From Oasisia sp. SBJ-2009 (Eukaryota; Annelida; Polychaeta; Sabellida; Siboglinidae): a stretch of 64,000 nt of DNA. The position numbers were made by a program, and so were the translations under genes. The notes below the pieces were generated by a model, which saw nothing but the letters and a program-made list of their open reading frames with translations, ran no database searches and was not told the origin of the DNA. Positions within the stretch are counted from its first letter, which is position 1. The number at the start of each line of letters is the position of its first letter. Of the stretch, positions 27,118 through 48,364 are shown one piece after another. The DNA is taken from assembly GCA_964017155.1 (NCBI GenBank), contig OZ024854.1:11686392-11750391 (forward strand). The letters are read 5' to 3'.

Positions 27118-28704
27118 ATGAGTCTGCTGTTATCTTTTCCTCCGATTCCTCCGGAGGGCCACGTGACGGTGTGTGAACAGAATGCAGAGCTACTGGCTCT
27201 ACCAAAAGAGGTCGCTGCTGACCAGTTGAGTATGCAGGTAAACACTCCTCTCAATTACATTTTCTTTACATGTCTTGTATCAGATTCATTTTGCAAACTT
27301 ATTGCAACGATATCAGTGTTTCACCTGGCGGGCAATTCCAGCATCACTCATGTTACATTTGAAATGTTTTGGATGTTTCCTCGCATCATATTTCAGAGTT
27401 TTACTGATCAGTCTAAAGTGTTACATGCAGACCATCAGTAACACATCTGACAATATGCACTAATGTGAATAACAGATTGAAGAATACCAACTGTACATAA
27501 ATGATTGTTAGTATCTACATAAAAAAATGTAGTACTTAACTTGGTTCATTTGAATACTGAACTGGAAATGGGCTATGAATTTGGGGAAGTTTTTTTTTAA
27601 TGCAGCCCCAACCATTCCAAAAGCTCCTATTCTAAATTACGAAGTAGCCTTTAAAAGTAACTTCCATTTTAAATACTTCCAATATGTGTACAGTTCAATA
27701 CAAGCATTAATTTTTCAATATGAGAAGTTTTATTTTTTCATTGTCATGTTACATGGAATTACCCTGGATAAAATAATGGGCGATATGGTAGGGTGCTCGG
27801 CAAGCACTGAAGGTGCAATGTAGTGTGGGCTTCTGGTGGCATGCCCCCAGAATAATTTTTAAAACTAGGGGTAGGCCTCAAAATGGTGCATTGTGATTAA
27901 TGAAGTGTGTTTGAACCTATTCCCTGGCATATAGTGGGGAGAAAAATTATAAATTACCATGTAAACTTGGTTGTGGCATTACTGTAAGGACTTTGGAATC
28001 CCGGCATATGTTGGGCTAGAAAAGTAGGGAGTCGACCAACCTCTCTTTTCATGTAGCAGGGGAGACACTGATATTCATTTTGTTCTAGTGAAATTAGCAC
28101 AATAAAGTGACAATTTATAATCACAGACAATTATTAAATATCTGTTAACCAATTGCAGTGAACATTTGTTAAAAATATACACGGTGTTTGGCTCTGCTTG
28201 AAGTAACATGTAGCATACATGTTTAAGTAATTCATATTACTCAGTCACAATAAATAAGAAACTAAAATAATTTAGTTTAATATTAATTCTCAATGCAATC
28301 CACACTGTAATTGTAACCTATATTTTTATGAAATTGTAGTTGGTATTTAATGATACCGTGTGGCATGTGATTATAAAATTCTCTTTACTGTGATTGAATC
28401 TAGCCCTTGTAAGTGACACGTGTGATGTTGTCATCTCTTGTAGGGTCTTCCGTACCCAACTGTTGACGTGGCTCAAGATCTTCTCCGCCCCTCCATATCC
28501 AGGGTCAGTGCCCGGTCAGCATTTATTGAACACACGGAGACACCCCACAAACGTCTGCTCCAGGCCTGGTAGGTCCCTTACTGAGCTACAATAATAACAA
28601 TAAAGCTTTATTCTCCATTTTCAATATGCAATATACATTTAAATAGGAATGTGTTCTTGCATTTAAGTGATATAGTGCCTATATAAAATAAAATATGATA
28701 TATA

Positions 28705-28748
<44 letters not shown>

Positions 28749-28866
28749 GTTCTTTAAATTAAAATAATTAAGTATCCATTATAATTATTTGTTTGATCTA
28801 ATAAATAAATATATTATCTATAAGATGTCCTTTAATATAATAAATGATCTATTAAAAATTAAACTA

Positions 28867-28921
<55 letters not shown>

Positions 28922-31900
28922 TAAAAGGTCATTTAAAATAAAAAATCTATTTTTAATTAAAATGTTAAGCTAAATTTTCACAATAAAAGAAAATGAAACA
29001 GGTGAAATGCTCCAAAATTAATGAAAAGTGAAATATTTTGAAGCTAGTACAGTGTATTTAACAAAATATAACAAGTAAAGCCCCAGGTTTGTTTCACATG
29101 TAGGAGTCTAGGACCAGTGTAACATCCACACCAGTAAATGTGATAAGTAAATATTGTATTGCACTACATATTGTATGGTGAGGGTAGTCATGGTATTGTA
29201 TCATACTATCATTGCAACTCAGCGATTTACATTTTCGCTATATATATCTAGTTATTATCTACATGGTAACTGACACAAAGCACGAGCCTGTCTAGACACA
29301 CACAATACTGTGTCTGTTCCAACTCACCTAAGCTGTCTGTGCTCCAGGCATGAGCACGGCGTGTCTGGAGTCCTGGAGGAACTGGCAGCCGGCAACAGAG
29401 AACCTGTCGTAGGTGAGGCTCATGTTGGTGTTCTCCTTGTTCTCCCTGTCGTCAGGGGTGAGGTTGCCATGGTTACTGTCATCTTTTCATTGTCTTCTGT
29501 TTCCTCTCCTCACTTTCCTCTCATTGCGTTCACTGTCACTAGTCTCCAACTTCTTTTTATCTTTTGCTGTTGTTCTCCATTCTACTCCCACTCTTTCCAG
29601 ATCTCTCAACACCCATCTGTCCCATTCACGGTCTTCCTCCCCTCCTCCATCCCTCCACATTCTGGACATCTACTCTCATTTCCCATTCTTTCCACATGTC
29701 TGGGCCATTTCAACCTACTCCTCACCAGTTTGTCCTTAATGATGCTTTCAAATATGTAGTGTGAGATCAGTACGTATTCCATAGTCTGGGGTTCAAGCTG
29801 TATTCTGACATTGTTTTGTTACCAGCAAGATCAGTTATGTTTTAAATGTTAGTTAACTGAGTACAATTTGCTGTAAAACCTAAATGTATTCCACAGCATT
29901 AAATAGAGATGTTGTGAAACTTTCATATCTTCACAGATTTCTACTACTGTGTAGAGGAGTGAATGTATTGATTCAGATGATGTTGATTGTGATATTTCAT
30001 CACACAGTGGGTCGCACAGTTAGTCTACTAGCATCTGTCTTGCTCGGTGCCGTGCGATGGGCGAACTCTCTGAGAGGAACTATCTGTCCTCATCTCATGG
30101 TGAGACATCTACAGGCTTTGTCTTCTTCAGTTGCCATTAACCCTCACATGTGCAACATACATGTGTGTGCATGCATGCACACACATACACACACCGCACA
30201 CCACACACCGCACACCGCACACACCGCACACCATACACCACACGCCACGCGCCACGCAACACACGCCACACAAACACATCACATGCCAGACATACACCAC
30301 ACACACGCCACAGACAACACACGCCACATACACTTGCATTAATGTTTTTTTGATATGTTGAATACACTAATAAAAAATTAAGTTTGATGTCTATTTCCAT
30401 GCAAGGAAGAACATGTTTACTGTCATGCTTACGTGAATATTTGCCTAGTTTTTACCCAGTGCTTGCAACAACATAATATATTGTTTAAAACCTTGACGAT
30501 TTTTCCAATAACCTAACGGTGTATTATTTGTATACTTATTTGTATTTCAGAAGGTGTTTGAGAGTTGTTTTTGAGATTTATGTGACGACAAATGAAATCA
30601 CAATACTTAGTTATGCTTCTTGATTATTCCAGATGACAAACGAAGATATGGTTGCAGAATTCTCTCCTAATTCAAACTGGTATGTTGTTTTGTAAATAAT
30701 TTTTATGAGATATTGTATGAGTGTAGAATTATATCTGTACGAGACATATGCAGATCAAAATAATTTATATACACATCGTTGATAGCACAACTTTCCTAGA
30801 AATATAACGATATAAATGTTAGCAATTGTGATGTGTTATGTTGAAGGTGGGATGCATACATCAGGTGTTTGGTGTGATGTTTGATGTTGAAGGCGGGATG
30901 CATACATCGGGTGTTTGGTGTGATGTTTGATGTTGAAGGTGGGATGCATACATCGGGTGCTTGTTGTGATGTTTTATGTTGAAGGTGGGATGCTTACATC
31001 AGGTGTTTGGTTTGATGTTTGATGTTGCAGGCGGGATGCATACATCAGGTGTTTGGTTTGATGTTTGATGTTGAAGGCGGGATGCATACATCAGGTGTTT
31101 GATGTTTGATGTTGCAGGCGGGATGCATACATCAGGTGTTTGGTTTGATGTTTGATGTTGAAGGCGGGATGCATACATCAGGTGTTTGGTTTGATGTTGA
31201 AGGCGGGATGCATACATCAGGTGTTTGGTTTGATGTTGAAGGCGGGATGCTTACATCAGGTGTTTGATGTTTGATGTTGAAGGTGGGATGCTTACATCAG
31301 TTGTTTGGTTTGATGTTGCAGGTGGGATGCTTACATCAGGTGTTTGGTTTGATGTTGAAGGCGGGATGCTTACATCAGGTGTTTGATGTTTGATGTTGAA
31401 GGTGGGATGCATACATCAGGTGTTTGGTTTGATGTTTGATGTTGAAGGCGGGATGCATACATCAGGTGTTTGATGTTTGATGTTGCAGGCGGGATGCATA
31501 CATCAGGTGTTTGGTTTGATGTTTGATGTTGCAGGCGGGATGCGTACATCAGGTGTTTGGTTTGATGTTGCAGGCGGGATGCGTACATCAGGTGTTTTGC
31601 GTGGCACCCTCACACCATGAAGTTTGCCATCGCCCTCCAGGACGATTCAGTGAAGGTTTACACCGGCTGCAGGACTGACGTGACCCCCACCCTCAAACAC
31701 AAGCTACAGAAAGGGGTTGCGGACGTCGCATGGAGGTATAGTGTTCACAATTCACTGGGAATGTACTTATGTACCTCCATAGCTGATAGTGGTAAATTAC
31801 CCTCTTACACAACACCGTTTATTTCTTCTTATTATTATTGTCTTCTTATTGTAGCTCAACACCCTGAAGTAGCCACGTATATATTCGTGGCTAGAGTATT

Positions 31901-34900
31901 GTCGAGCTTGGTCGGACGCAAGTAGTGGGTGGTGTTGCACGGGGGGGGGGGATAATAAGACGTAAATATGTACTTATGTAGGCATTGACTGCAAAAGCCT
32001 TCTAAATCAATTGAGTGATTGTTTGCTAATTGTTGTGTGCATTTGTTCCATGATTTGATGGTGCTCGGAAAGAAGGAGTGCGGGTGAATGGTTGTAAGTA
32101 GCGGTGTGTGTTGCCTCTGGTGCGTGTAGGAGCGGCTGTGAGTGCGGATGTTGTTACGTTCTTTGTAGATGGGACAAATGCAGTGAACCTGACGAAAATC
32201 AATTACAATTAATGATTTTAATGACTTATGCCCCATCCATGTACTACATGATCTGACATTCATCTAGAGAGAATGCAGCCTGGTATGTCAAAATTGTGCT
32301 GTCGAGATACTCCCCCATCTAGCCCTTGGTTGCAGCTACATGTTGTCCTCAGTCCTGGCCGTGGCGTGCCAGACGTGCACCCTCATATGGCATGTTGACC
32401 CTACATCTCTCGCTTCAAGGTACGTCTCGATTGTTTTCGTGCTCGCATTTTGACGGTATGGTCAGACCAACTACAACACTGACACATTTTAAAAACTGAA
32501 CTTAAATTTAACTCTAACCACACTAGTTGTGTATTTTAACATATTCAGCATGATTTATTGTGAAAACTGAATTAAGCTTTTGAGAGAAGTCATTTTGACT
32601 CACTAGTGTCTATAGTTTATTGTTTTTAACATGTTAAATACACATATTTAATGGAACAAAATGAACTAGATGTATAAATGAGATTATAACGTTTGCATAT
32701 ATGCCAGAATAGCAAAGTTAATGACACATGACCTAGGTAGTTATTTTTAGCTCATGTGCAGAATGGACTTGTTCGGTTTCATGTCCCAGATCACATGTTG
32801 CTCTCCAGCGTTGTTCTAGCTGCAATTGACAACACGTTCAAGTATAATGTCGTCTGTGTTTGTCAGGCCGTCCACCAGTTCAGTCCAGGTGTTGACCAGA
32901 TCTGGACACAGCCCTGTCACAGGCCTGGCCTGGTGTCCAACAGGGGACACGCTGGTGACAGGCTCAGCGGCCGACGCCTCCATCCTGGTATGTCAACTTG
33001 TCATTGTCCTGTGGTTGGGCGAAGGCTTCAGCATGCTTTTCCACATCTGCCTGTATTGTAAAAATAAAGGCAAGTTCATATATACCGCAGTATCCAGTCC
33101 TGAGGACCAGATACTGTGCTATATAAGAACTTGCCTCTGAGAAGCATCTAACCATATGCTACAATGAATACGCTAAGGCTGCTCTTACACATATCCACCA
33201 CTGTCTATAGCCAGGTACTCATTTATACAGCTGAGTGAACTGGAGCAATGTAGAGTGAAAAAACTTGCCCAAGGTTGTAACACCGCAGCACAGGATTCAA
33301 ACCCGGGTTCTCGTAGTCAAGAGTCCGAAGCTCTTCCCCTGAGTCCGCTCTGCCTGTCTAGTGCTAGCCTCTGGTGTCATTCAAGTACTCATCTAGCTCG
33401 CCTCAATGGTCTTCCTCTAGATCGTTTCCCTTCGTAAGGTTTCCAGGTGCCGTGGTGATTCATCAAGTTCATTTCCACCTTCTGACTTGTTCAGTCTCGT
33501 CTATGACTTTGTCTTCTTTCTTACGCAGATGTTTGTTTTTCTGTCCCGGTATACAGCACAATATCCAATCATTAGGATTGCTTGAAGCACTTTACATTTT
33601 ACTCCCTGACAGACCTGTTCAAACAAACACCATCTTGGCTTCTTAGGGAAGTCTTGGGCTACCCTATGTACTTGCTTACAATCATCCATGAGGCAATAAA
33701 TCAAGGATATCACATTATATTGATCTCTTAAAAAGAATTCCACAAAGACAACCACTGGAAGAGTGTCTCACCAAACAGGAGGCAGACACTGCAGATAAAC
33801 ATAGTAAGCTAAAAACTTAATAAAATGAGTATTTAAATTAATTCTTGTTCTGTAATATGTCTCCAAATTACATATTATGTCATTGACCATGGTTCCTGTC
33901 TCGCCCGCCAGGTATGGGAGGTGTCACGTGAAATGTGTACAGCGTTGCGACGATTCGGGTGCATCGGAAATTCGGTTTTGTCCTGGTCACCAGATGGCAG
34001 CAACCTGCTGGCGGCATCACCTGCGGCGGAGTTTCGGTGAGGAGGCAGGAACTAGATGACACTGACTGCTACATTATCTTGTGTTATACAACATTTTTAT
34101 AAATTGTTTTCTTCGTTGTTTTCTGTGTTGTTTTCTTTGTTGTTTTCTGTGTTGTTTTCTTTGTTGTTTTCTGTGTTGTTTTCTGTGTTGTCTTCCGTGT
34201 TGTTTTCTGTGTTGTTTTCTGTGTTGTCTTCCGTGTTGTTTTCTTTGTTGTTTTCTGTGTTGTCTTCTGTGTTGTTTTCTTTGTTGTTATCTGTGTTTTT
34301 TCTGTGTTGGTTTCTTTATTGTTTTCCATGTTGTTTTCTTTGTTGTTTTCCATGTTGTTTTCTTTGTTGTTTTCTGTGTTGTTTTCTTTGTTGTTTTCTG
34401 TGTTGTTTTCTTTGTTGTTTTCTTTGTTGTTTTCTTTGTTGTTTTCTTTGTTGTTTTCTGTGTTGTTTTCTTTGTTGTTTTCTTTGTTGTTTTCTGTGTT
34501 GTTTTCTTTGTTGTTTTCTTTGTTGTTTTCCATGTTGTTTTCTTTGTTGTTTTCTTTGTTGTTTTCTTTGTTGTTTTCTTTGTTGTTTTCCATGTTGTTT
34601 TCCATGTTGTTTTCCATGTTGTTTTCCATGTTGTTTTCCGTGTTGTTTTCTTTGTTGTTTTCTTTGTTGTTTTCTTTGTTGTTTTCTTTGTTGTTTTCCA
34701 TGTTGTTTTCCATGTTGTTTTCCATGTTGTTTTCCATGTTGTTTTCTTTGTTGTTTTCTTTGTTGTTTTCTTTGTTGTTTTCTTTGTTGTTTTCTGTGTT
34801 GTTTTCTGTGTTGTTTTCTGTGTTGTTTTCTGTGTTGTTTTCTTTGTTGTTTTCTTTGTTGTTTTCTTTGTTGTTTTCCATGTTGTTTTCCATGTTGTTT

Positions 34901-37774
34901 TCCTTGTTGTTTTCTTTGTTGTTTTCTTTGTTGTTTTCTTTGTTGTTTTCCATGTTGTTTTCCATGTTGTTTTCTTTGTTGTTTTCTTTGTTATTTTGTA
35001 TATTCACTTTCGTGGGATCTGTCACATGACAGTTGGATTAGTGACAAAGCAGTGGGGTGACAAACAGCAGGAATTGCCATGTAACTTTCTTAAATGAAAA
35101 CAAATGTGTCACGTAAATTTGATTAAAATTTTATAATGATTGAAAAGCCTCTGAAACTAGAAATATTTTTGGATACGATTATTTTGGGAATACACTGATA
35201 CAGTTAACATTTCAGTTTAAATTAATTGTATATGAAGCTTAATACGTTCTCCATAATATTAGGAAGGCAAAGGGTGTTGTAATTTGTAAATTGGTGTTTT
35301 GTTTTGTAGCGTGTGGGAATGTCGAAGATGGACGACTGAGAAGTGGTGTAATCTGTCAGGCAGGGTCAAGGTCAGCTAATGGAATGTTGTCTGGCGTTCA
35401 CTGGCATATTATATATAATAAAATTAAATATGGGAAATTAATACATAATATACAGTGTACATAATTATTATGTTCTTTAAATAATAAAAGATATTATTTT
35501 GATCTAATAAATAAATAAAAACAACATTGTGTGACTAACTGAGTGACTCAATTTTGTTTACTTACGACTCATTTTGTTGGAATACGTCACAACTGTGTAA
35601 TAACTGCCTTGTAAGTTACGGTGCCATGATTTCTGACTGTTCTCTCTAGTGTGTGTGCAATGTGGACCAGACTGTGGAATAGTGTCCTTGTTTCCATACG
35701 CCTCACTACATCAACAGATGCATTGAAGAGACAATTAATGATATACCTGTTTAGAAAGGCATTTACGATTAATTTTAATTATTTAAGACATATATATTCT
35801 TAATGTGTGTTTCTTTTAGAGATATTTTGTAATTTACTTATCTTAGACATGTAATTTAAATTGTGCGTAGTTTAAGAAAATACTGCATTTTAAAGTTTTA
35901 GTATCTATGACTAACTTTAATGATCTTATGTATTTATCTATTAGTATTTGTGACTTGTTTTAATGATTGAACCTGTAAAGTAACTTTGAGATGTTTAGGC
36001 TGAAAAGAGCGCTATGTAAATGTTCACATTGTTATTCCTGCAGTGTGCCGTGTGGAGTCCAGACGGCAACATCCTGCTGTTTGCGACGGTCAACGAACCC
36101 ATCATCTACTCCCTCGCATTCCAACACAGTGGGGACTTCAAGGACCCCGGCACTGGGGGGTCAAAGGTCGCAGTACAGTGTGCCGACTTGAGTGAGACAG
36201 TTGTGGGGGGCATCAGGTGAGACAGTTGTGGGGGGCAGCAGGTGAGACAGTTGTGGGGGGCATCAGGTGAGACAGTTGTAGGGGGCAGCAGATGAGACAG
36301 TTGTGGGGGGCAGCAGGTGAGACAGTTGTGGGGGGCAGCAGGTGAGACAGTTGTGGGGGCAGCAGGTGAGACAGTTGTAGGGGGCAGCAGGTGAGACAGT
36401 TGTGGGGGGCAGCAGGTGAGACAGTTGTAGGGGGCAGCAGGTGAGACAGTTGTGGGGGGCAGCAGGTGAGACAGTTGTGGGGGGCACCAGGTGAGACAGT
36501 TGTGGGGGGCACCAGGTGAGACAGTTGTGTGGGGCACCAGGTGAGACAGTTGTGGGGGGTACCAGGTGAGACAGTTGTGGGGGGCACCAGGTGAGACAGT
36601 TGTGGGGGGTACCAGGTGAGACAGTTGTGGGAGGTACCAGGTGAGACAGTTGTGGGGGTTACCAGGTGAAACAGTTGTGGGGGACACCAGGTGAGACAGT
36701 TGTGGGGGGTACCAGGTGAGACAGTTGTGGGAGGTACCAGGTGAGACAGTTGTGGGGGGTACCAGGTGAAACAGTTGTGGGGGCAACAGGAATAGACGTA
36801 TTGGTGTGTACAGTTTATTGTATTGGTTTTACAATCTTGTAATTTAGGTGTGTCTGAGTATAATGTTTATGGCTAGCTGATTCCCACACAAGCAGTGATA
36901 GTTGTCACTGTTTAACTGTATTTAATAAAATAAACTAGTTCCCTGGATGTGAGAATCAGAACATTTCAAAAATATAGAAGTAGATAATGCTAGATAATTA
37001 TTGTTTTCTTTTCTGAAACTTCGTAAAAAAGCGGAAGTATGAACATGGTCATGTGTTAATATATAGATGGATTATTATCGTTAAGAGAGAGATAGAGCAA
37101 GACAGAGAGGCAATGGGAAGAGAGGGGGGGGGGGAGAGATCTGATGCTTTAACCATAAAGAAATCACACTGATTGGGGTCAAAAGTTCATGTTTGTCTGA
37201 GTTGTGAGTTCCTCTATTCAAGTGATGAACCGTCATTAGAAATGATAGTGTCCGATGACTTACATGTACAAATTTCATACCACAATCTCCTGCCAAATTG
37301 CAGACATAAGAGAGAAAATAGTCTAAACAGTCTTGTTTAACTATTTAGTTTACTACCTTATTTATTTTATTCACTCAAATCTTTAGCTTATTTACATCTT
37401 AAAAACTTGTATTCTTATATATTTTATAAGTATAAAACATATATTTTATTACTTTAATATGATATAAATTTATTTGTATTCGTAAAACATATATTTTGAA
37501 TTCAGATGCACAACCAGCAAAACATGTAAAATAAACATGGTACTAAATTTAAGTAAACGTCCTCAACTCATAAGTTGCCACCATGTCTTGAAAGGTGATC
37601 CGTGTGGAATACAACTTTATAAATGTGTAGACAGATTTGAATGTTCATGCTATTGTTGTGATCGTGTGTAGTGTTGGAGGAAACATACAAGCGATGACGT
37701 GGGACCAGACAGGGGAGAGGCTGGCTGTACAGTTCACAGGTACAGGCTGTGTGTAATGGTTGGTTGCACGCACA

Positions 37775-37810
<36 letters not shown>

Positions 37811-38793
37811 CACACGCACACACGCACACACACACACACCAATCTCGACAAATGACAAATTTTATGAAGTACACTCTATGTCTATGTCTATGCTACGCAT
37901 ATTCTGTTGTTTGCAGACCTGGGCACCATTTCACCAACATTTTAGTTAAGAGACGTCTTAAACCCGATTATGTTCTTTAAAATCAATTTTGATCCTTAAT
38001 AATGATCTCGAACACATGAGAACTGTCAACACCATGAAATGCTAGTGGAACACTGTCACTGGAATGTCTGTAGTAATACGGCAATGGATATTTACGTTTT
38101 GATCAAAACTCATTTAATTTAAAACTCATTTAATTGTGTTTAATGATGACATTTCTTTAATAACTTTATTTTAGTGAAACAGATTTCATAGAATGTATGC
38201 TTTTTACGCATATATGCTACTAACTTTCTGCAAAATCTGATGCAAAACACTATCCTTTTGTAATATAATAATATTATGAACATTTATATAGTGGCCTTTT
38301 CTGCCTAAACAGCTCAAAGACACTTTACATGTTCGGTAATTAAAACGGCACAAATACTAATAGACTAATATACAAACGTGTACACATCCGTAGGAAGCCA
38401 CCATATGTAATGGTGTGATTTTAGTACCTTTTATGTTCATTTTGGCAATTGTTTTAGAGTTGCGTGAATAAACGTAAAACAGTTGTGTTTGTTTTTACTT
38501 ATGTGATCTCTGAATTACTTGCTGATGTGTTTTGCAGACTGTGAGTTCATCGCACTCTTCCAGACAAGAATGCAGCCGGTGCTTGAGATTATCCCAAGGT
38601 AATTAGGTTCTACAGTTCACTGCAGGTCTCTACCGTGTTGATATCTTAATGCTGGTGTAAAGTTTATGACAGATAATTAAGAGGTCGGTCACCACATAAT
38701 TGTGTCAATTGAATCCAACATATCACCATGACTGTATATGCACATTCACATGCACAATCACACACACATACATATGCAAGTACACACACGCAT

Positions 38794-38844
<51 letters not shown>

Positions 38845-40633
38845 CACATGCACACACATACACGCACACATTGAACACATAATATTAAATATTACATTAC
38901 TCCAGAACATGTGTATTGACCTTCTGTGTGGTTAAACACTTGGTTGTTTTGTCTTTCATTGTTCATGTCCTCAAAGTAATGTTCTGTTATGATGGATAGA
39001 TGCAAGCAAACTCCCTGTGTAAGCAACATATGCATACAAAGGTAGAGTCATTGTTACATCTTGCATTAATAACTTGATCTTGTATATTATATTATCTCTA
39101 ATGTTGAATATGTTGAACATGTATCCACAATTTAACGCTTGATATTATATTTTACCTCAGAATGCCCAAAGTGATTATATTTGTGACACAGATTATATTT
39201 ATGACATATGCAATTATTGTTATATTTCTCATGTTCTCTGTCTTCCAGTGGCTTCGTACGTGGCAATGTTGGTGACATTCCATCTGTGATGTCCTTTCAG
39301 CCATCATTTGGTCATGGAGCACTGCTTACAGTTGTAAGTGTCACCAGTTTACGTATTTGTTGTCCTTGTGGACCAAATAATAGAATGCTACAAAATAATA
39401 GGTATAAATCCTGTGGAAACAAGTGTTCAGTTTACATAGAAGGTACCTGGGTGTCTAAGCTGTCAAAATCATACATCATATTCTGGTGTTTTTAGGATGA
39501 AGTGATGGTCATATTTTTAATCCTGTTACAGTGTACCTCGGCAAGCTTTGTGTGCAAACATAATATTCACCCACCAGTGATAATCTAATAAAGAGTGAGC
39601 TCACCAAATGGGCAGCTAAAAGACCTGCAGGGATTGGTTCACTAAGATAAACAGATTCTAAGGAAATGTCATCTTTAAACACAAATATCCATTGTCATAT
39701 TACTGAAGACATTATTTCCATGACACACCAGTGACAACGTCTCGCTGGCGTGTCCTGGTGTTGACAGTTTTCAGGTATTCAAGACCACTGTTAAGGATCA
39801 AAATTGATCTTAAAGTGCAAACTTACTGTTACACGTAAGAGCTCTTAACAACGTTAGAGAAATGGTTCCCTGGGTTCAAGCTGTTGTTTTTGAAATAAGC
39901 ACAATTTCATTCACTCCATCTTGGCCCTTGGGTCATAAAGTTGGTGATGTATTCAGCATGTCAAAAGGACACTGCACAGAAAATAATAAAGCTTTATTGC
40001 CATTTTCAACATGCATTACATGTTAAATTGGAATGTAGTCTGGCATTGACACACATAGTGCCTATATTTACAATAAAATTAATATGGCAAATAAATATAT
40101 AATATACAGAGTACATATGTTCTTTAAAATGAGAAAAGATTTTTTTTATCTAATAATAAATAAATAACATATCTCATATATCTTTTAAAATAATAGATTA
40201 TCTATTTAAAAATAATTGTGTTAAGCTAGTTAGTAAATAAATAAACATAAAATGTCCATTAACATTTTAAATTATCTTCTAAAAATATTTTTCAGTTAGT
40301 AAACAAATACATATTATAAGAGGTGTAAAATTTACAATTGAGTTATATATAAAATTGAATTATATTTATAATAAATGCATCCAAATAAAACACTTAACAA
40401 TTATATTAAAAATTATGTTTAAAATTATATAACATATGTTGCATCCTCCTCACATTTGATATGTCTGTCTCCAGGTGTGGGCGCGAGGCACAGTCTCGTA
40501 CATTCCTCTCTACTTCATCTCAGCGAAGTCGATACAGAAGAGCGCCCTCTCTCAGCAACGATCTGGCAACATGCCCGTCCCTGTTGCCCGACAGCCGACC
40601 ACTCTCTTCTCCCACGGTGACAATGACTGGTGA
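27118..40633 (+). CDS. AAAS: Aladin, WD-repeat nucleoporin (15 exons, 515 aa)
   Basis: Aladin is a scaffold-associated nucleoporin of the nuclear pore complex; loss in humans causes triple-A syndrome. Exons: 27118-27237, 28444-28568, 29348-29412, 30008-30099, 30633-30679, 31574-31735, 32336-32419, 32867-32987, 33912-34036, 35310-35370, 36044-36216, 37672-37739, 38538-38598, 39249-39333, 40475-40633 (TGA). Phases agree at all 14 junctions, giving 516 codons with the stop. Recognisable blocks: start [38 protein letters not shown] (exon 6), [16 protein letters not shown] (exon 8), [12 protein letters not shown] (exon 9), [11 protein letters not shown] and ADLSETVV (exon 11), [13 protein letters not shown] (exon 14) and [11 protein letters not shown] (exon 15). 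WD-type repeats span roughly residues 150-390. Length is close to the human protein as recalled (546 aa). The acceptor of exon 6 and the donor of exon 11 are embedded in tandem arrays of their own sequence. Confidence 0.95.
28596..28860. mobile_element. Dispersed repeat starting AATAAAGCTTTATT
   Basis: AATAATAACAATAAAGCTTTATT followed by CATTTTCAATATGCA, ATTTAAATAGGAATGT and TAGTGCCTATAT. Matching blocks occur at 39985-40300 and partly at 35405-35520, all in the same orientation within AAAS introns. Probably a 3' end of a retroelement read on the minus strand. Includes a (TA)n tract at 28709-28741. Confidence 0.6.
28869..28920. repeat. (GT)n microsatellite
   Basis: About 26 GT units in AAAS intron 2. 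Confidence 0.95.
29475..29740 (-). mobile_element. LINE reverse-transcriptase C-terminal fragment, frameshifted
   Basis: Minus-strand translation gives [14 protein letters not shown], then in another frame [20 protein letters not shown], the typical end of endonuclease-reverse transcriptase proteins. At least one frameshift separates the two parts. It lies in AAAS intron 3. Confidence 0.7.
30142..30345. repeat. (CACA/CACGCCA)n low-complexity tract
   Basis: Imperfect CA-rich repeat with ACCGCACACC and ACGCCACA variants, starting about 45 bp after the exon 4 donor of AAAS. Confidence 0.9.
30843..31573. repeat. Tandem array of AAAS exon 6 acceptor region (17 units)
   Basis: Seventeen units of 39, 41 or 46 bp precede exon 6. 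Each contains TTG(A/C)AGG(C/T)GGGATGC followed by (A/T/G)TACATCAGGTGTTTG, that is, the last bases of the intron plus the first ~25 bases of exon 6. Five units (near 31026, 31114, 31316, 31483 and 31531) keep an intact TTGCAG acceptor; the others read TTGAAG. The functional unit is the last one, where GTGTTT continues into GCGTGGCAC. Use of the nearest upstream copy would read TGT TTG GTT TGA, a premature stop. Confidence 0.95.
31860..32265 (-). mobile_element. LINE reverse-transcriptase C-terminal fragment
   Basis: The minus-strand ORF 32263-31856 contains [15 protein letters not shown] and [14 protein letters not shown], resembling the extreme C-terminus of LINE-type RTs (FFPRTIxxWN). It lies in AAAS intron 6. 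A TTATTATTATTG-type stretch lies beside its 3' end (31827-31853 on the plus strand). Confidence 0.65.
33065..33370 (-). mobile_element. tRNA-derived SINE, reverse orientation
   Basis: The reverse strand reads a head with CTCAGGGGAAGAGCTTCGG and a B-box-like CCCGGGTTTGAATCC, then a body with CTGTATAAATGAGTACCTGGC, and ends ATACTGGATACTGCGGTAT. The same order occurs on the plus strand at 50595-50915. AAAS intron 8. Confidence 0.7.
34106..34995. repeat. 12-bp minisatellite, ~75 units, in AAAS intron 9
   Basis: Near-uninterrupted repetition of TTGTTTTCTTTG with variants TTGTTTTCCATG and TTGTTTTCTGTG, starting about 70 bp after the exon 9 donor. Because the unit is a multiple of three, both strands stay open for about 240-340 codons in several frames (minus: [12 protein letters not shown] pattern). 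These frames are repeat artefacts. Variants occur in short runs, suggesting higher-order duplication. Confidence 0.95.
35640..36035 (+). mobile_element. LINE 3' fragment abutting AAAS exon 11
   Basis: The plus strand encodes a decayed RT C-terminus ([20 protein letters not shown], then KAFTIN). It is followed by a 3' UTR ending near GAAAAGAGCGCTATGTAAATG, about 20 bp before the exon 11 acceptor at 36043. Confidence 0.65.
36217..36790. repeat. 25-bp tandem array duplicating AAAS exon 11 donor (~23 units)
   Basis: Units of 24-25 bp reading GTGAGACAGTTGTGGGGGGC followed by AGCAG, ATCAG or ACCAG. The unit equals the last 24-25 bases of exon 11 (codons for SETVVGGIR) running into its GTGAGA donor, so nearly every unit carries a CAG|GTGAGA 5' splice site. 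The first donor (36217) preserves the reading frame; reading into the array meets TGA at once. G-runs occur in every unit. Confidence 0.95.
37769..37840. repeat. (ACGC)n/(CA)n microsatellite
   Basis: About 11 ACGC units then CA-rich sequence, about 30 bp after the exon 12 donor. Confidence 0.95.
38786..38870. repeat. (ACGC)n/(CA)n microsatellite
   Basis: ACGC units followed by CA units in AAAS intron 13; the same motif as at 437 and 37769. Confidence 0.95.
39985..40440. mobile_element. Dispersed repeat starting AATAAAGCTTTATT
   Basis: Same family as 28596-28860: AAAATAATAAAGCTTTATTG, CATTTTCAACATGCA, TGGAATGTAGTCT, TAGTGCCTATAT. It continues as AT-rich sequence to just before AAAS exon 15. 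Confidence 0.6.
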
Positions 40634-42782: not shown

Positions 42783-44027
42783 TTACGAGTCCCCTTTCCG
42801 AGGCATTGGCGATGCAATATTCCTTTTGAACGTTTCAACGGCAGCCTGCACCATCTCATTAGGATGTCGCGTCGTAGACTCGCGTCCATGCGCTTCGCTC
42901 AGGCTCAGCCGAGAAGAACTCGTTCGCTTGGAGGCGGACAAAACAGGAACAGCAATGTTCAGATTGGACGCGTTTGACGCGAGTCTCTCTAGCACGACCG
43001 ACTCCCTCTTCTGCGGTCTGCTCTCACGTATTATCGGCACGAGGAGTTGTCCAGCCGGAGCTCGGTAAGACGGCGACATTTCAAGAGAGACAACATCAAT
43101 GATCGACGGGAGATCCACGTCTCGATGTTGTCTATTCATTCTGCTGATCCTCCGCAAAGCATCGGAACCAATTCTGCCGTACGCGTTCGGCTCGGAGTGA
43201 AACTTAATCGTCGTCTGCAATCCACTGTCCAGTGACTTCGTCGCGGGATTCGTCAACTGTGTCTGTCGTTTCGACAAACCCACAAAACGGGGGTGTCTCG
43301 GTCGGATGGACTGGAGTTTGTCGTCTCGAGTCTGCTTGGCCGCGGCTGCGAGTTGCTGCTGTCGCTGGCACACAGCCCCGCCGTGGTGCAGTGACCAGCC
43401 GCCGGCAATGCTTGACCTAAGGACGTCTTTGCCGGCTCGCCTGGTCGTTTCCTCTGCGATCCTCGGCAGTGCCCCGACTACGCTGAGCCTGTGAACGCTC
43501 GCAAAGCCTTCCTGGCGAAGGATGTCAGCAATGTTGTAGAAGCCGAACTTCTGTGCGTATTGATAGGGCGATAGGCCGCCGTGCGAAGTAACGTCGGCGC
43601 TTAGTCCGTATCTCATGAGATTTGTCACGACTAGCTGAACGAGGGAAGCACTTCCGGTGGAGACAGCGTGGTGCAACGCTGTATATCCGTAGGCGTCAGG
43701 AGCGTTCATGTCAATATCACCCGGCGCAAAGGAAAGCAACGTCTTCAGCTCTTTCGTCCGTTCCAGCTTGCAAGCCGTCGCAAAGACGTTCCTACCCGTC
43801 TCCCGGTCGACGCAGTTGTAGTTGGCGCCACAGCTGAGCAGGAACCGGAAGAAGCGGTCACGGGTGCGGCCATTGGGGATGTGCAGCGCCGCGACGAGGG
43901 CACAACGCGAATTAGGGCCATCTATCGGAACCCCGGAGTTGATGAGATATTGAACTTGGCGGAATCGTCCATGGATTATGGCGTCGTATAAAACGGGCGA
44001 CATGGTCAACGATGCGGAGAATTTCAC
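42783..44027 (-). CDS. Single-exon ankyrin-repeat protein (414 aa)
   Basis: Intact ORF without introns, more GC-rich than its surroundings. Residues about 8-174 form about five ankyrin-type repeats: LYDAIIHGRFRQVQYLINSG, ALVAALH...RFLLSCGANYNCVD, NVFATACK...LKTLLS, AYGYTALHHAVSTGSASLVQ, and LSPYQYAQKFGFYNIADILR. The rest (about 175-414) is low-complexity, Ser/Arg-rich and probably disordered. Either Met1 or Met8 (MSPVLYD) could be the start; Met8 begins directly at the first repeat. The layout of N-terminal ankyrins with a disordered tail in one exon recalls ANKRD34-type proteins, but orthology is not established. The partner is unknown; ankyrin repeats bind proteins. A retrogene origin is possible. 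Confidence 0.75.
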   Translation of the reverse strand: MKFSASLTMSPVLYDAIIHGRFRQVQYLINSGVPIDGPNSRCALVAALHIPNGRTRDRFFRFLLSCGANYNCVDRETGRNVFATACKLERTKELKTLLSFAPGDIDMNAPDAYGYTALHHAVSTGSASLVQLVVTNLMRYGLSADVTSHGGLSPYQYAQKFGFYNIADILRQEGFASVHRLSVVGALPRIAEETTRRAGKDVLRSSIAGGWSLHHGGAVCQRQQQLAAAAKQTRDDKLQSIRPRHPRFVGLSKRQTQLTNPATKSLDSGLQTTIKFHSEPNAYGRIGSDALRRISRMNRQHRDVDLPSIIDVVSLEMSPSYRAPAGQLLVPIIRESRPQKRESVVLERLASNASNLNIAVPVLSASKRTSSSRLSLSEAHGRESTTRHPNEMVQAAVETFKRNIASPMPRKGDS

Positions 44028-45549
44028 ATCGTGCTTTCACTCAACGATTGAAACAACACGTGGGTTGACTTTTCCGCAGAGTCTATGGTGCACCTGTAAA
44101 AGTGAACTCGTGACGTCGACGAGTCCTGATCTGAGTGCGGAAATACGTAATTTGCAAACATATGACAACAAGTCCGGCACTTACAAAGCGCGTCGTTCAC
44201 AAGTTCGATTGCTTAACGTGCTTAACTGGACTGGAAAAGACAATCCGTATCGCCAGAACACATCCCTGGTCTGACGGCATGCCGTTCATGTCCCGAGTAC
44301 ACTCCACTAGCCGCTTGGTGATTTTAGCTGTCGCCTCACATATAATACTTGCCAGAATTGACTTTATCGAGGTGAAAACAATGCTTCGGTTAAGTTGTGA
44401 TATAACAACGGTGGCCAGAGTTGCGTAAGTCATCCACACGACCGACGAAGCGTAATGGGCCGTAACGCGCAGTAACGCCAGCTCGTAACTTCGGCCCGAC
44501 GCGTTTAATAAGCTTTGCGTATAACGGACTGGTCTAAATCAGCAGTTGTTCCTTCTGCACCGTAAAACCATTAGCTGTTGTCGCAAGCGTGTTAATGATT
44601 CTCGATTGTCGTTCTCCGTTCACCACCCCGACTGTGATAGATTACGTCATTTGTTTGATATTGCTACAGTATAAAATTATGATCTTAAGCATTACCATAT
44701 GATAAGCAAACCTATTTTCTTAGATGTGCATTCGCGCGGAAGCAAAAAAGAGTACTGTACTAATACAAATGTAGTATGCAGATAATGTTCAACTAGAGTG
44801 TAAGCCGTTTCGAGCAATCCGATGGTTTGATACTGCACTATGTAAGAAATTACCTTTATTTGTCACTCAGAAGAAATAAGGGGCTATAACTAAACTTAAC
44901 TTCAAGCATACTAATATACTCTTAAACACACAGCAGCATATCATAGAAAGATGGTGCGCTCTCCCCTCTCTCATTGCATGAATTTATTACTTGTGTTGAT
45001 TTATAAACCGCAAATTAGTACAAAATATGCTGTCAAATAAAAAGGAAGATTGTCATAATTGCCGTACGTAGCGTAGACGACAATGCCGCCATTGTAGAGG
45101 CTAAGTTAATATATTTCGTTGCATGTCTTACATGTGTGCATTATAAAAATCAGTGTCGTTTTTATATCATGTAGCTGTTGTCTTTATTTTTATCCTTGAA
45201 TATTTATGTTGCACGTGCTCCTCCAATTTGTAGTCTGCATTCCAATCGTCATACGTTTAAAAAAACGACGCAATATCGCACTGTCATGGGTTTTTGCGAT
45301 AGATACAATGAATACTATAGTAAACACCTAGACGTAGGTGTCATGCAAATAGTAAAAGATAAAGGTAACGCTATATTTCTTTTTTCTTTTTACGTAAAAA
45401 GAAGTGTGCAAGATATAGATTACACCAGTATCGGTATAAAGTAAAACATAAGCGGCAAGATCATTTATTATAGGTTACATTATGTCATACAATGGCGAAT
45501 GTATCAAATGTGAACATCTAATCATTTGGGTACATAATTAACAATAAAG

Positions 45550-46300: not shown

Positions 46301-46516
46301 ATAACTAGATGCAGGATTACGTATTATAACTTACCATATTCAATTCCAAACACTATTAGACATCTACGCGTATAATTAATGCTTTGTATGTCTATGTTTG
46401 GTTTGGATGATGAAAATAAATGTAGGTATTAATGTTCAGTATGAAATATGAGCCAGATCCTGCAGTAAAAGTACCTCTGACGTTATTCTTACCCACTCCA
46501 AGTCAGCATTGTCGGC

Positions 46517-48364
46517 ATGGCTATAGTTGCGTCGTACACTGGCACAAGTAGAGCACTTAATCAAGCTACAGCTGAAATTAGAAATTCGAAGAGAAGCTAT
46601 GAACAAAAAATAGCTTTCAACATAAAACATGACAGCAAGAGTTTTTATGCGTATGTTCGAAGTAAACAGAAAGTTCAAGATAAGGTCGGGCCACTAGAAG
46701 GTAGTGATGGAAACATAATAACGGAGGGATTCTTAATGGCAGAAAACCTAAATGAATACTTTAGTTCGGTGTTTACCAGGGAAGATATTAGTACATTACC
46801 AGTACTAGAGACTAAGTTCGAAGGGAGAGAGTGTGACTATTTAGGACAACTAACTGTAACCCCAAAAATGGTAGCTATGAAAATAAGAGATATGAAGGAT
46901 AATAAATCACCAGGAGTGGATGGGATTCCTCCCAAATTACTACTGGAAATTGTAGAACAAATTAGCATACCACTTGCAACAGTGTTCAATTTGGCATTAG
47001 AGGAAGGAGTGGTTCCGGTAGAATGGAAAGAAGCAAACATCATACCATTATTTAAAAAAGGATCAAGAAGCAAGTCAGAGAACTATAGACCAGTGAGTTT
47101 AACATCGGTGATTTGTAAACTATTAGAAAGACTAATTAAAGATCACTTGGTTGATTTTCTTGTTAAAAATAAATTGATAAACACATCTCAACATGGGTTT
47201 TTAAAAGCGAGGTCATGCTTAACAAATATGTTATGTTTTTTGGAAGATGTCACAAAGTGGGTAGATGAGGGATCACCAGTAGATATAATCTACTTAGATT
47301 TTAAAAAAGCCTTTGACAAAGTGCCACACCAAAGATTACTACTTAAACTAAAGGCCCATGGCATAGGAAATAGTATGATTAACTGGATAGAAAAATGGCT
47401 TATTGATAGAAGACAAAGAGTAGTAGTTGATGGGGAGGTTTCAAATTGGAAATCTGTTTTGAGTGGAGTACCGCAAGGATCAGTATTGGGACCTATTTTA
47501 TTCTTAATATATATCAATGATTTGGATGATGACATAACAAGCAAGGTGTTGAAGTTTGCGGACGACACAAAAGTGTTTAGGAAAATAAAAAGTGATGCAG
47601 ATAGACAGCATTTACAAGATGATCTAAATAAGTTGATAGAATGGTCTGAGAAATGGCAAATGCTGTTTAACTTTGGAAAGTGTAAGTGCCTCCACACAGG
47701 ACATGGGAATGAAAATGCACAATATACAATGGGTGGTACTGTACTAAATACTACTGTAAAGGAAAAGGACTTAGGTTTAACCATTAGTGCTGACATGAAG
47801 GTATCAGAGCAGTGTGGAATTGCAGCAGCGAAGGCAAACCAAATTCTTGGATTAATTAGGCGAAATATAGTATACAAAGAAAAAGAACTAATAATACCGC
47901 TTTATAAAACAATAGTTAGGCCTCATTTAGAATATTGTATACAAGCATGGAGGCCATATCGCAAGAAGGATATTGATATGCTAGAAAGAGTACAAAGGAG
48001 AGCAACGAAAATGATACCAAAACTCAGGAATATTAGTTATGAAATGCGTCTAAAAGAATGTGGTCTAACAACACTAGAAACCAGAAGATTGAGAGGAGAT
48101 CAGATTGAGGTTTTTAAAATATTGAATGGGTATGAAAATATTGACAGAAATATTTTTTTCACGGTCAAGGAAGAGAGAAGGACTAGAGGACATGGAGTTG
48201 CATTAGCAAAGAAGCAGTGTAGACTAGATATTAGAAAATTTTCATTTTCCCAAAGAATAGTAAACGAATGGAACAAATTATCAGCTGATTGTGTAGGTGC
48301 TAGAAGTGTTAATATGTTTAAAAATAAAATTGACATATACCTAAGACGGGCAGGGTATACTTAG
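46517..48364 (+). mobile_element. Non-LTR retrotransposon reverse transcriptase, 615-codon ORF
   Basis: Uninterrupted RT ORF. In order: SPGVDGIPPKLL (RT 1), EANIIPLFKKGSRSKSENYR with PVSLTSVICKLLERLI (RT 2), QHGFLKARSC (RT 3), DIIYLDFKKAFDKVPH (RT 4, first catalytic Asp), SGVPQGSVLGPILFLIYIND (RT 5-6), LKFADDTKVF (FADD catalytic pair, Phe instead of the common Tyr), then thumb and a C-terminal LFSF..RIVNEWNKL-like motif (FSFSQRIVNEWNKLSADCV). No apurinic endonuclease domain is seen upstream, so the copy is probably 5' truncated. The 3' UTR ends near 48465 with TCTTGTTAAA units. Jockey/CR1-like by motif; clade not certain. The long open frame suggests a recent insertion. Confidence 0.9.

What the first reader, a model, noticed from the sequence alone, without database searches (positions are those of the whole stretch)
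36044..36790. AAAS exon 11 donor multiplied into ~22 consecutive 5' splice sites
A 25-bp unit equal to the end of exon 11 plus its donor is repeated ~23 times. Almost every unit offers CAG|GTGAGA. Only the first keeps the frame; any other retains TGA. Each unit also has a G-run (GGGGGG), a known class of intronic splicing enhancer and a potential quadruplex former. Finding this in the same gene as the acceptor array suggests recurrent exon-edge slippage here.
Basis: partly seen in the sequence, partly recalled or inferred. Interest (0 to 1): 0.8.

Follow-up and report, generated by a model that had tools for sequence, protein, structure and literature searches.

The report
Repeated splice site at exon end
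In a deep-sea tubeworm's aladin gene the end of one exon and its splice signal are repeated about two dozen times, so that only the first copy can give a whole protein; the same layout is known in a few human genes and seems to recur elsewhere in this worm's genome.

Summary
Positions 36192-36790 hold 24 tandem copies of a 25-bp unit; the first is the coding end of exon 11 of an intact, single-copy AAAS gene of a vestimentiferan tubeworm close to Ridgeia. The 23 unit joints give 22 GT donors and one dead site. Intron phase and relatives' proteins support the border at 36216; every later donor reads TGA at once. No quadruplex motif with loops up to 12 nt exists. Best explanation: an exon-edge minisatellite whose first donor is used, the rest being decoys that waste a little mRNA. 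Donor use was not observed. The kind is known: human ABCA7 has a 25-bp x 23.7 array at its exon 18 donor; CBS and IFI6 are others. Two arrays at AAAS exon edges are what array coverage of the window predicts, so 'recurrent slippage here' does not follow. But whole-genome pattern searches show more donor arrays: by eye I place 15 of 21 sampled at a coding exon's end (6 with homology support, 2 weakly), while an automatic criterion passes 13 of 21 against 79 of 253 background sites. Array variants also match residues that differ between tubeworm species at this exon end, suggesting exchange between array and exon.

The parts
27118..40630 (+). AAAS (aladin) coding exons, 15-exon model, 515 aa (stop codon follows); CDS 1545 nt
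   Evidence: model, exon 10 end moved to 35370 after the relatives' RVK; length checked; 95.3% identical to Ridgeia P0001 (491 of 515); single copy in the genome
36044..36216 (+). exon 11, 173 bp, phase 0 to 2
   Evidence: acceptor ttcctgcag|TGTG and donor CAG|gtgaga; PDB aladin match with exon 11+12 peptide 2.3e-18; relatives keep the join
36192..36216 (+). first unit of the array, coding: S-E-T-V-V-G-G-I-S with one base of exon 12
36217..36790 (+). intronic part of the array, 23 units, 574 nt, 39% of intron 11
36217..36225 (+). donor 1 (first intron bases GTGAGACAG), the only one that keeps the reading frame; strongest U1 pairing of the gene's 14 donors (-11.1 kcal/mol)
36242..36774 (+). decoy donors: GT sites starting every 25 nt (24 nt once) from 36242 to 36766, 21 of them, each giving an immediate TGA
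36292..36300 (+). dead donor CAG|ATGAGA
36466..36765 (+). 12 distal units ending CACCAG or TACCAG; folding model pairs CACC/UACC with the donor's GGUG, lowering donor accessibility about ten-fold
37672..37739 (+). exon 12, 68 bp, starts in phase 2; skipping it would shift the frame
30829..31599 (+). second exon-edge array: 18 copies of intron end plus start of exon 6 (the true acceptor, 31574, is the last); each of the 17 upstream acceptors would bring in a stop

Best explanation
An exon-edge minisatellite. A 25-bp stretch, the last 25 coding bases of exon 11 beginning with GTGAGACAG and running up to the donor that begins with the same bases, was tandemly copied into intron 11. The array drifts by unit gain and loss inside the intron. 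Because every unit ends with the same exon end and starts with the same donor, unit gain or loss leaves exon 11 intact as long as the first donor is chosen. The splicing machinery, defining a normal-sized exon (173 nt) from the acceptor at 36044, mostly picks the first donor; later donors are decoys whose products carry an immediate TGA and would go to nonsense-mediated decay. Shown: array, border, frame, U1 pairing, single-copy gene. Inferred: preferred use of the first donor, decay of decoy products, neutral drift.
For: Array and border. Three relatives join this exon end to exon 12 without array sequence: SETVIGGIS-VGG (P0001 Ridgeia gene model), SETVVGGTS-LGG (P0002, a 2162-nt contig, too short for the 13.5-kb gene, so by inference spliced RNA), SETFVGDSS-VGG (P0009 Lamellibrachia satsuma gene model). 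The whole ORF is intact, so functional mRNA must use 36216 at least often. Donor 1 is the most accessible of the 23 joints in RNAplfold at all three settings (0.125, 0.061, 0.046) and holds 17-33% of the summed accessibility. Near neighbours differ less than distant ones (1.35 v 1.97 mismatches), as tandem copying gives. In human ABCA7, an array of the same anatomy, retention of one unit was about 2% of transcripts (PMC5954066, passages).
Against: No RNA data from this animal. Duplicated strong donors in minigenes often favour the intron-proximal site (recalled), which would predict heavy decoy use. The accessibility advantage is largely an edge effect: with units shuffled the first donor still ranks first in 50, 156 and 121 of 200 orders, and 7, 11 and 9 of 44 rotations or reversals (the observed order among them) give it an equal or larger share. 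The 5'-3' difference beats 200 of 200 shuffles, but shuffling ignores that like units cluster. The direct exon/donor repeat that could have seeded the array is perfect only here (8 of 8) and not general among 14 arrays.
Confidence: 0.72

Rival explanations
1. Regulated unproductive splicing: the decoy donors set AAAS protein level by sending a tunable share of transcripts to decay, the share depending on U1 or hnRNP level and on array length.
For: All 21 later GT donors give an immediate TGA; 19 of them pair with U1 as well as the first, -11.1 kcal/mol. ABCA7 array length correlates with exon 19 skipping and lower expression (PMC5954066); here exon 12 is 68 bp, frame-shifting if skipped, with one of the weaker pyrimidine tracts (0.55; exons 4 and 6 have 0.55 and 0.50).
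Against: No conserved element beyond the unit is known; no array sequence from relatives was available; nothing shows regulation.
Confidence: 0.12
2. Array and exon end exchange sequence: unequal exchange or conversion copies array units into the exon, so the last residues of exon 11 turn over between species.
For: Array units read in the exon frame carry I, S or T at the third-last residue and once G-to-D; the relatives have I, T, S and D there. 3 of the 4 relative residues reachable by one change are array states (hypergeometric 0.0035), and all 5 multi-unit variant states are silent or relative-like (0.0027). Unit 1 equals unit 3 and differs from unit 2.
Against: Post hoc tests on protein letters only; two of the five relative substitutions (V-to-F, V-to-I) are not in the array; silent excess alone is weak (P = 0.11); faster change of the nine residues is not significant (4 of 9 v 52 of 274, P = 0.08; v 9 of 49 in exon 11, P = 0.10). 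A tolerant loop site can change in parallel.
Confidence: 0.25
3. The array is a landing pad for U1 that protects the intron from premature polyadenylation, or a G-rich R-loop site.
For: 20 near-consensus U1 sites in 600 nt; strong G skew of 36-38 kb (0.269).
Against: No such need is evident in a 1455-nt intron; the quadruplex motif fails with loops up to 12 nt.
Confidence: 0.04
4. Assembly artefact.
For: Tandem arrays can be mis-sized in assemblies.
Against: Units differ in an ordered way (CAGC units, then CACC, then TACC); unique locus on a 71-Mb contig.
Confidence: 0.03

Closest known systems
ABCA7 intron 18 VNTR (human), PMC5954066 (passages read)
   Same: 25-bp unit, 23.7 copies in the reference, starting at and including the exon 18 donor; retaining one unit shifts the frame to a premature stop
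   Different: Unrelated gene and sequence; described there as an intronic repeat whose first two bases are the donor GT in a C-rich region, whereas here the first unit is coding exon and the transcribed strand reads G-rich; length polymorphism, expression and skipping effects were measured there, not here
CBS 31-bp VNTR, c.1444_1467+7(16_21) (human), PMC2630376 (passages read)
   Same: By its name the unit spans the exon's last 24 nt and 7 intron nt, 16-21 copies
   Different: Unrelated sequence and unit length; allele frequencies known
IFI6 / 6-16 minisatellite (human), Turri, Cuin and Porter 1995 (title seen in reference lists; not held); IFI6 passage in PMC4526556
   Same: A minisatellite giving multiple splice donors
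   Different: There downstream units are used and three mRNAs encode isoforms; here a later unit always gives a stop
Intron gain by tandem duplication of AGGT-bearing exon pieces (PMC4974935, search listing only)
   Same: Tandem copying of a sequence that holds a splice site
   Different: No new intron: the acceptor of intron 11 (37671) lies 881 nt beyond the array

Membership tests
Exon-edge donor minisatellite (ABCA7 / CBS / IFI6 kind) | tandem array whose unit includes the exon's donor and starts at the exon-intron border | tested here: met
   border by phase and relatives
Exon-edge donor minisatellite (ABCA7 / CBS / IFI6 kind) | retained unit changes the reading frame or ends it (ABCA7 subtype) | tested here: met
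   23 of 23 later exon ends
Exon-edge donor minisatellite (ABCA7 / CBS / IFI6 kind) | length polymorphism between individuals | not testable with these tools
   one assembly only
Exon-edge donor minisatellite (ABCA7 / CBS / IFI6 kind) | later donors used in RNA | not testable with these tools
   no RNA reads; the one spliced-size relative contig (P0002) shows the first join only, in a species whose array is unknown
IFI6 subtype | later units encode protein isoforms | tested here: not met
   TGA at once in all 23 later exon ends
G-quadruplex array | four runs of three or more G with loops of 1-7 nt | tested here: not met
   0 with loops up to 7, 0 up to 12; 5 with loops up to 21
Intron gain by tandem duplication | new intron bounded by duplicated AGGT sites | tested here: not met
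   intron 11 acceptor lies outside the array

The most novel reading that the evidence does not exclude
This tubeworm genome multiplies exon ends into donor arrays at many genes (a rough extrapolation from the two octamers searched gives about 400 for CAGGTGAG and 120 for CAGGTAAG), and such arrays act as reservoirs that rewrite the last codons of the exon by unequal exchange while splicing always takes the unit next to the exon, so the exon border heals itself after each rearrangement.
Probability: 0.25. Interest if true: 0.75.

Novelty: new member of a known kind. Interest (0 to 1): 0.5.

Why it matters
It gives a natural test of how a spliceosome chooses among about 20 identical strong donors, in a gene that must be spliced correctly (AAAS encodes the nuclear-pore protein aladin; human AAAS mutations cause triple A syndrome, recalled). 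If donor arrays recur across the genome, one animal offers many natural replicates with different unit lengths and copy numbers, which the few human cases do not, and the array/exon match in residues would make concerted evolution between an intron repeat and coding sequence directly testable.

Tried and rejected
Quadruplex: rejected with loops up to 12 nt. Microhomology birth as a general rule: exact only in AAAS, 2 to 5 of 8 matches in the 13 other arrays compared, best of five shifts. Evolved masking of decoys by CACC units: the folding effect is real in the model, but orders that keep like units together do as well in 7-11 of 44 cases, so selection is not shown. Recurrence argued from AAAS alone: rejected; arrays placed at random inside the gene would cover 5.4 edges on average and cover more exon (observed 51 exon bases, random mean 269, P = 0.008), fitting removal of arrays from exons, and the chance of two arrays that just touch one edge is 0.066. 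Seeding bias towards donors genome-wide: not proven. Raw match counts hardly differ from the reversed octamers (CAGGTGAG 4973 v 3867; CAGGTAAG 955 v 799), distinct arrays do (7 in the first 13.24 Mb of C1 v 8 reversed-octamer arrays on all 71 Mb of C1, 1 of them in the first 13.24 Mb). Array-side GC 80 nt: P = 0.057. Automatic acceptor-plus-open-frame criterion: 13 of 21 donor arrays, but 6 of 18 control flanks and 79 of 253 background sites also pass. It failed 4 arrays that I call exon-edge (L044a, L053, L055, L057), passed 2 that I read as antisense (L054, L062), and in some loci chose another frame than mine. Near-neighbour control CAGGTCAG: asked, never answered. Genome-contig scan: one bacterial match taken as chance.

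Searches for prior print: searches found no report of a donor array in AAAS or in tubeworms in the held library.

Full report
What is there. The window lies in a 764-Mb genome, C1:11686392-11750391. It holds a complete AAAS gene on the + strand, 15 coding exons from 27118 to 40630 (the end of exon 10 was moved to 35370 because relatives read NLSGRVKCA). The model is 515 aa and 95.3% identical (491 of 515) to a Ridgeia piscesae protein, 435 of 496 to P0002 and 240 of 283 to Lamellibrachia satsuma, so the animal is a vestimentiferan tubeworm near Ridgeia; the species was not settled (the published Riftia assembly is 560.7 Mb, PMC8789280 passage). AAAS is single copy: all 14 matches of the protein in the genome fall in this locus.

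The array. TRF gives 36192-36790, period 25, 24 copies, 94% match. The first unit is the coding end of exon 11 and reads, with one base of exon 12, SETVVGGIS; 23 further units follow in intron 11 and make up 574 of its 1455 nt. The 23 joints are 20 CAG|GTGAGA, 2 CAG|GTGAAA and 1 CAG|ATGAGA. By duplex energy with the 5' end of U1 (recalled sequence), CAG|GTGAGACA is the strongest of the gene's 14 donors (-11.1 against -10.0 for the next, exon 3), and only 5 of 4392 other GT sites of the window are as strong.

Is 36216 the real exon end? Exon 12 begins in phase 2, which fits 36216; all 23 later exon ends tested reach TGA after GGIR. The exon 11+12 peptide matches Xenopus (2.3e-18) and human aladin (1.2e-15) across the join. 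Of 64 homologues aligned with the model, three are tubeworms: P0001 (Ridgeia gene model), P0002 (2162-nt contig, which by its length must be spliced) and P0009 (L. satsuma gene model); all keep SET..G..S.GGNIQ with no inserted array sequence. These three and the model are four residues shorter here than Xenopus and human aladin. Two intron-free ORFs of other animals (P0121, P0122) read straight through the region of exons 11-13, so intron 11 is not universal.

How it most likely works. Under the simplest reading the spliceosome takes the first donor, as the intact ORF requires, and later donors are decoys. Local folding agrees in direction: of the 23 joints the first has the highest unpaired probability at three settings (0.125, 0.061, 0.046), holding 17, 26 and 33% of the sum where 4% would be even. 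Two causes appear in the model. The array pairs with itself, so its edge is freer; and the 12 distal units ending CACC or TACC can pair with the donor's GGUG, lowering accessibility about ten-fold compared with CAGC units (uniform arrays: 0.0043 v 0.0516). Shuffled orders put the first donor first in 50, 156 and 121 of 200 cases and 7-11 of 44 rotations or reversals equal the observed share, so no selection for this order is shown.

Known kind. Human ABCA7 has a 25-bp repeat, 23.7 copies in the reference genome, whose first two bases are the exon 18 donor; keeping one unit gives a frameshift and premature stop, frameshifting isoforms were 14% (cryptic acceptor) and 2% (unit retention), and skipping of the next exon rises with array length (PMC5954066, passages). 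CBS carries a 31-bp repeat named c.1444_1467+7(16_21), that is, 24 exon and 7 intron bases (PMC2630376, passages). IFI6 has a minisatellite giving multiple donors (Turri et al. 1995, title in reference lists; PMC4526556 passage). The AAAS array is therefore a new member of a known kind, with no common descent implied. From ABCA7 I predict low decoy use and possible length-dependent skipping of exon 12.

Is it recurrent? Within AAAS a second array multiplies the start of exon 6 (18 copies). Two of 28 edges in arrays is just what the 7.2% array coverage predicts (mean 2.0, P(2 or more) = 0.49). Across the genome I searched three copies of CAGGTGAG within 8-38 nt gaps: 2436 + 2537 matches against 2479 + 1388 for the reversed octamer. 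The reversed octamer's list covers all of C1 (71 Mb) and shows 8. CAGGTAAG gives 469 + 486 matches (control 366 + 433), 11 arrays on C1 and 3 more listed on C2. I fetched 20 further array edges, 6 and 14, and with AAAS read 21. By eye, 15 start at the end of an open exon-like stretch: AAAS, L040, L041, L042, L043, L044a, L049, L052, L053, L055, L056, L057, L058, L060, L061. Two lie at the start of an exon on the other strand (L054, L062), four are unclear (L044b, L050, L051, L059).

Homology support for the 15: L040 RRM_1 5.8e-14 and L042 FnI_RECK 1.9e-9; L060 methylcrotonoyl-CoA carboxylase, where the Ridgeia protein P0123 is identical over the exon's 32 residues and continues AIHPGYG exactly at the exon end (Pfam Biotin_carb_N only 0.0053); weakly L052 (EGF, 0.0012 and 0.0017) and L057 (polybromo-1, 0.0071); and AAAS itself. 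L062, antisense, is GMC_oxred 4.6e-10. Against: L041, L043, L044a, L049, L055, L056, L058 and L061 had no useful hit in the searches given them, L053 had only an implausible one (RHH_5, 0.014), and in the pooled search only 1 of 13 array-side peptides hit (its length and candidate limits make misses likely). Kinesin and SANT likeness of L049 and L055 are my recollection only.

Controls for the by-eye reading: of 18 flanks of 9 reversed-octamer arrays, six ORFs from six flanks went to Pfam with no hit. An automatic acceptor-plus-open-frame test passes 13 of 21 donor arrays, 6 of 18 control flanks, 79 of 253 background [AC]AG|GT sites of the window and 12 of 13 true internal AAAS exons. GC beside the array is 0.41-0.65 against 0.36-0.59 in control flanks, P = 0.057. 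So donor arrays at exon ends recur in this genome; whether donors are favoured as birth sites beyond their share of such octamers is open.

Exchange with the exon. Read in the exon frame, 22 full-length units among the first 23 give 9 SETVVGGTS, 7 SETVVGGSS, 2 SETVVGGIS and one each with N, W, V or D. P0002 is exactly SETVVGGTS; L. satsuma has D and S at the positions where the array has D and S; Ridgeia has I. Three of the four relative residues reachable by one base change are array states (hypergeometric 0.0035), and the five variant states shared by several units are all silent or relative-like (0.0027). This is the boldest reading left open.

Verdict.

Noticed in passing
window 30829-31599: Acceptor-side array: 18 copies of intron end plus the first 24 nt of exon 6; AAG or CAG before each (12 and 6); using any of the 17 upstream acceptors brings in a stop.
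   Followed up: yes
window 34104-34997: 894-bp array of TTGTTTTCTTTG (74.6 copies) starting 68 nt after the exon 9 donor.
   Followed up: no
window 35310-35370: Exon 10 ends at AAG|GTCAGC, a weak U1 match (-5.4), as the relatives' RVK shows.
   Followed up: partly
P0121, P0122: Two ORFs of other animals read without interruption across the homologues of exons 11, 12 and 13, so introns 11 and 12 seem absent there.
   Followed up: no
L041 (donor strand), about 2065-2393: An exon-like stretch with an array of donors after it and repeated acceptor-plus-exon-start copies before it: possibly arrays at both edges of one exon.
   Followed up: partly
L062 and L054: Arrays at what look like exon starts on the other strand, one in a GMC oxidoreductase exon (4.6e-10).
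   Followed up: partly
window 46481-48364 and 42783-44036: Open reverse transcriptase frame of 627 aa (RVT_1, 1.8e-35) and, on the minus strand, an intronless 417-aa ankyrin-repeat frame.
   Followed up: partly
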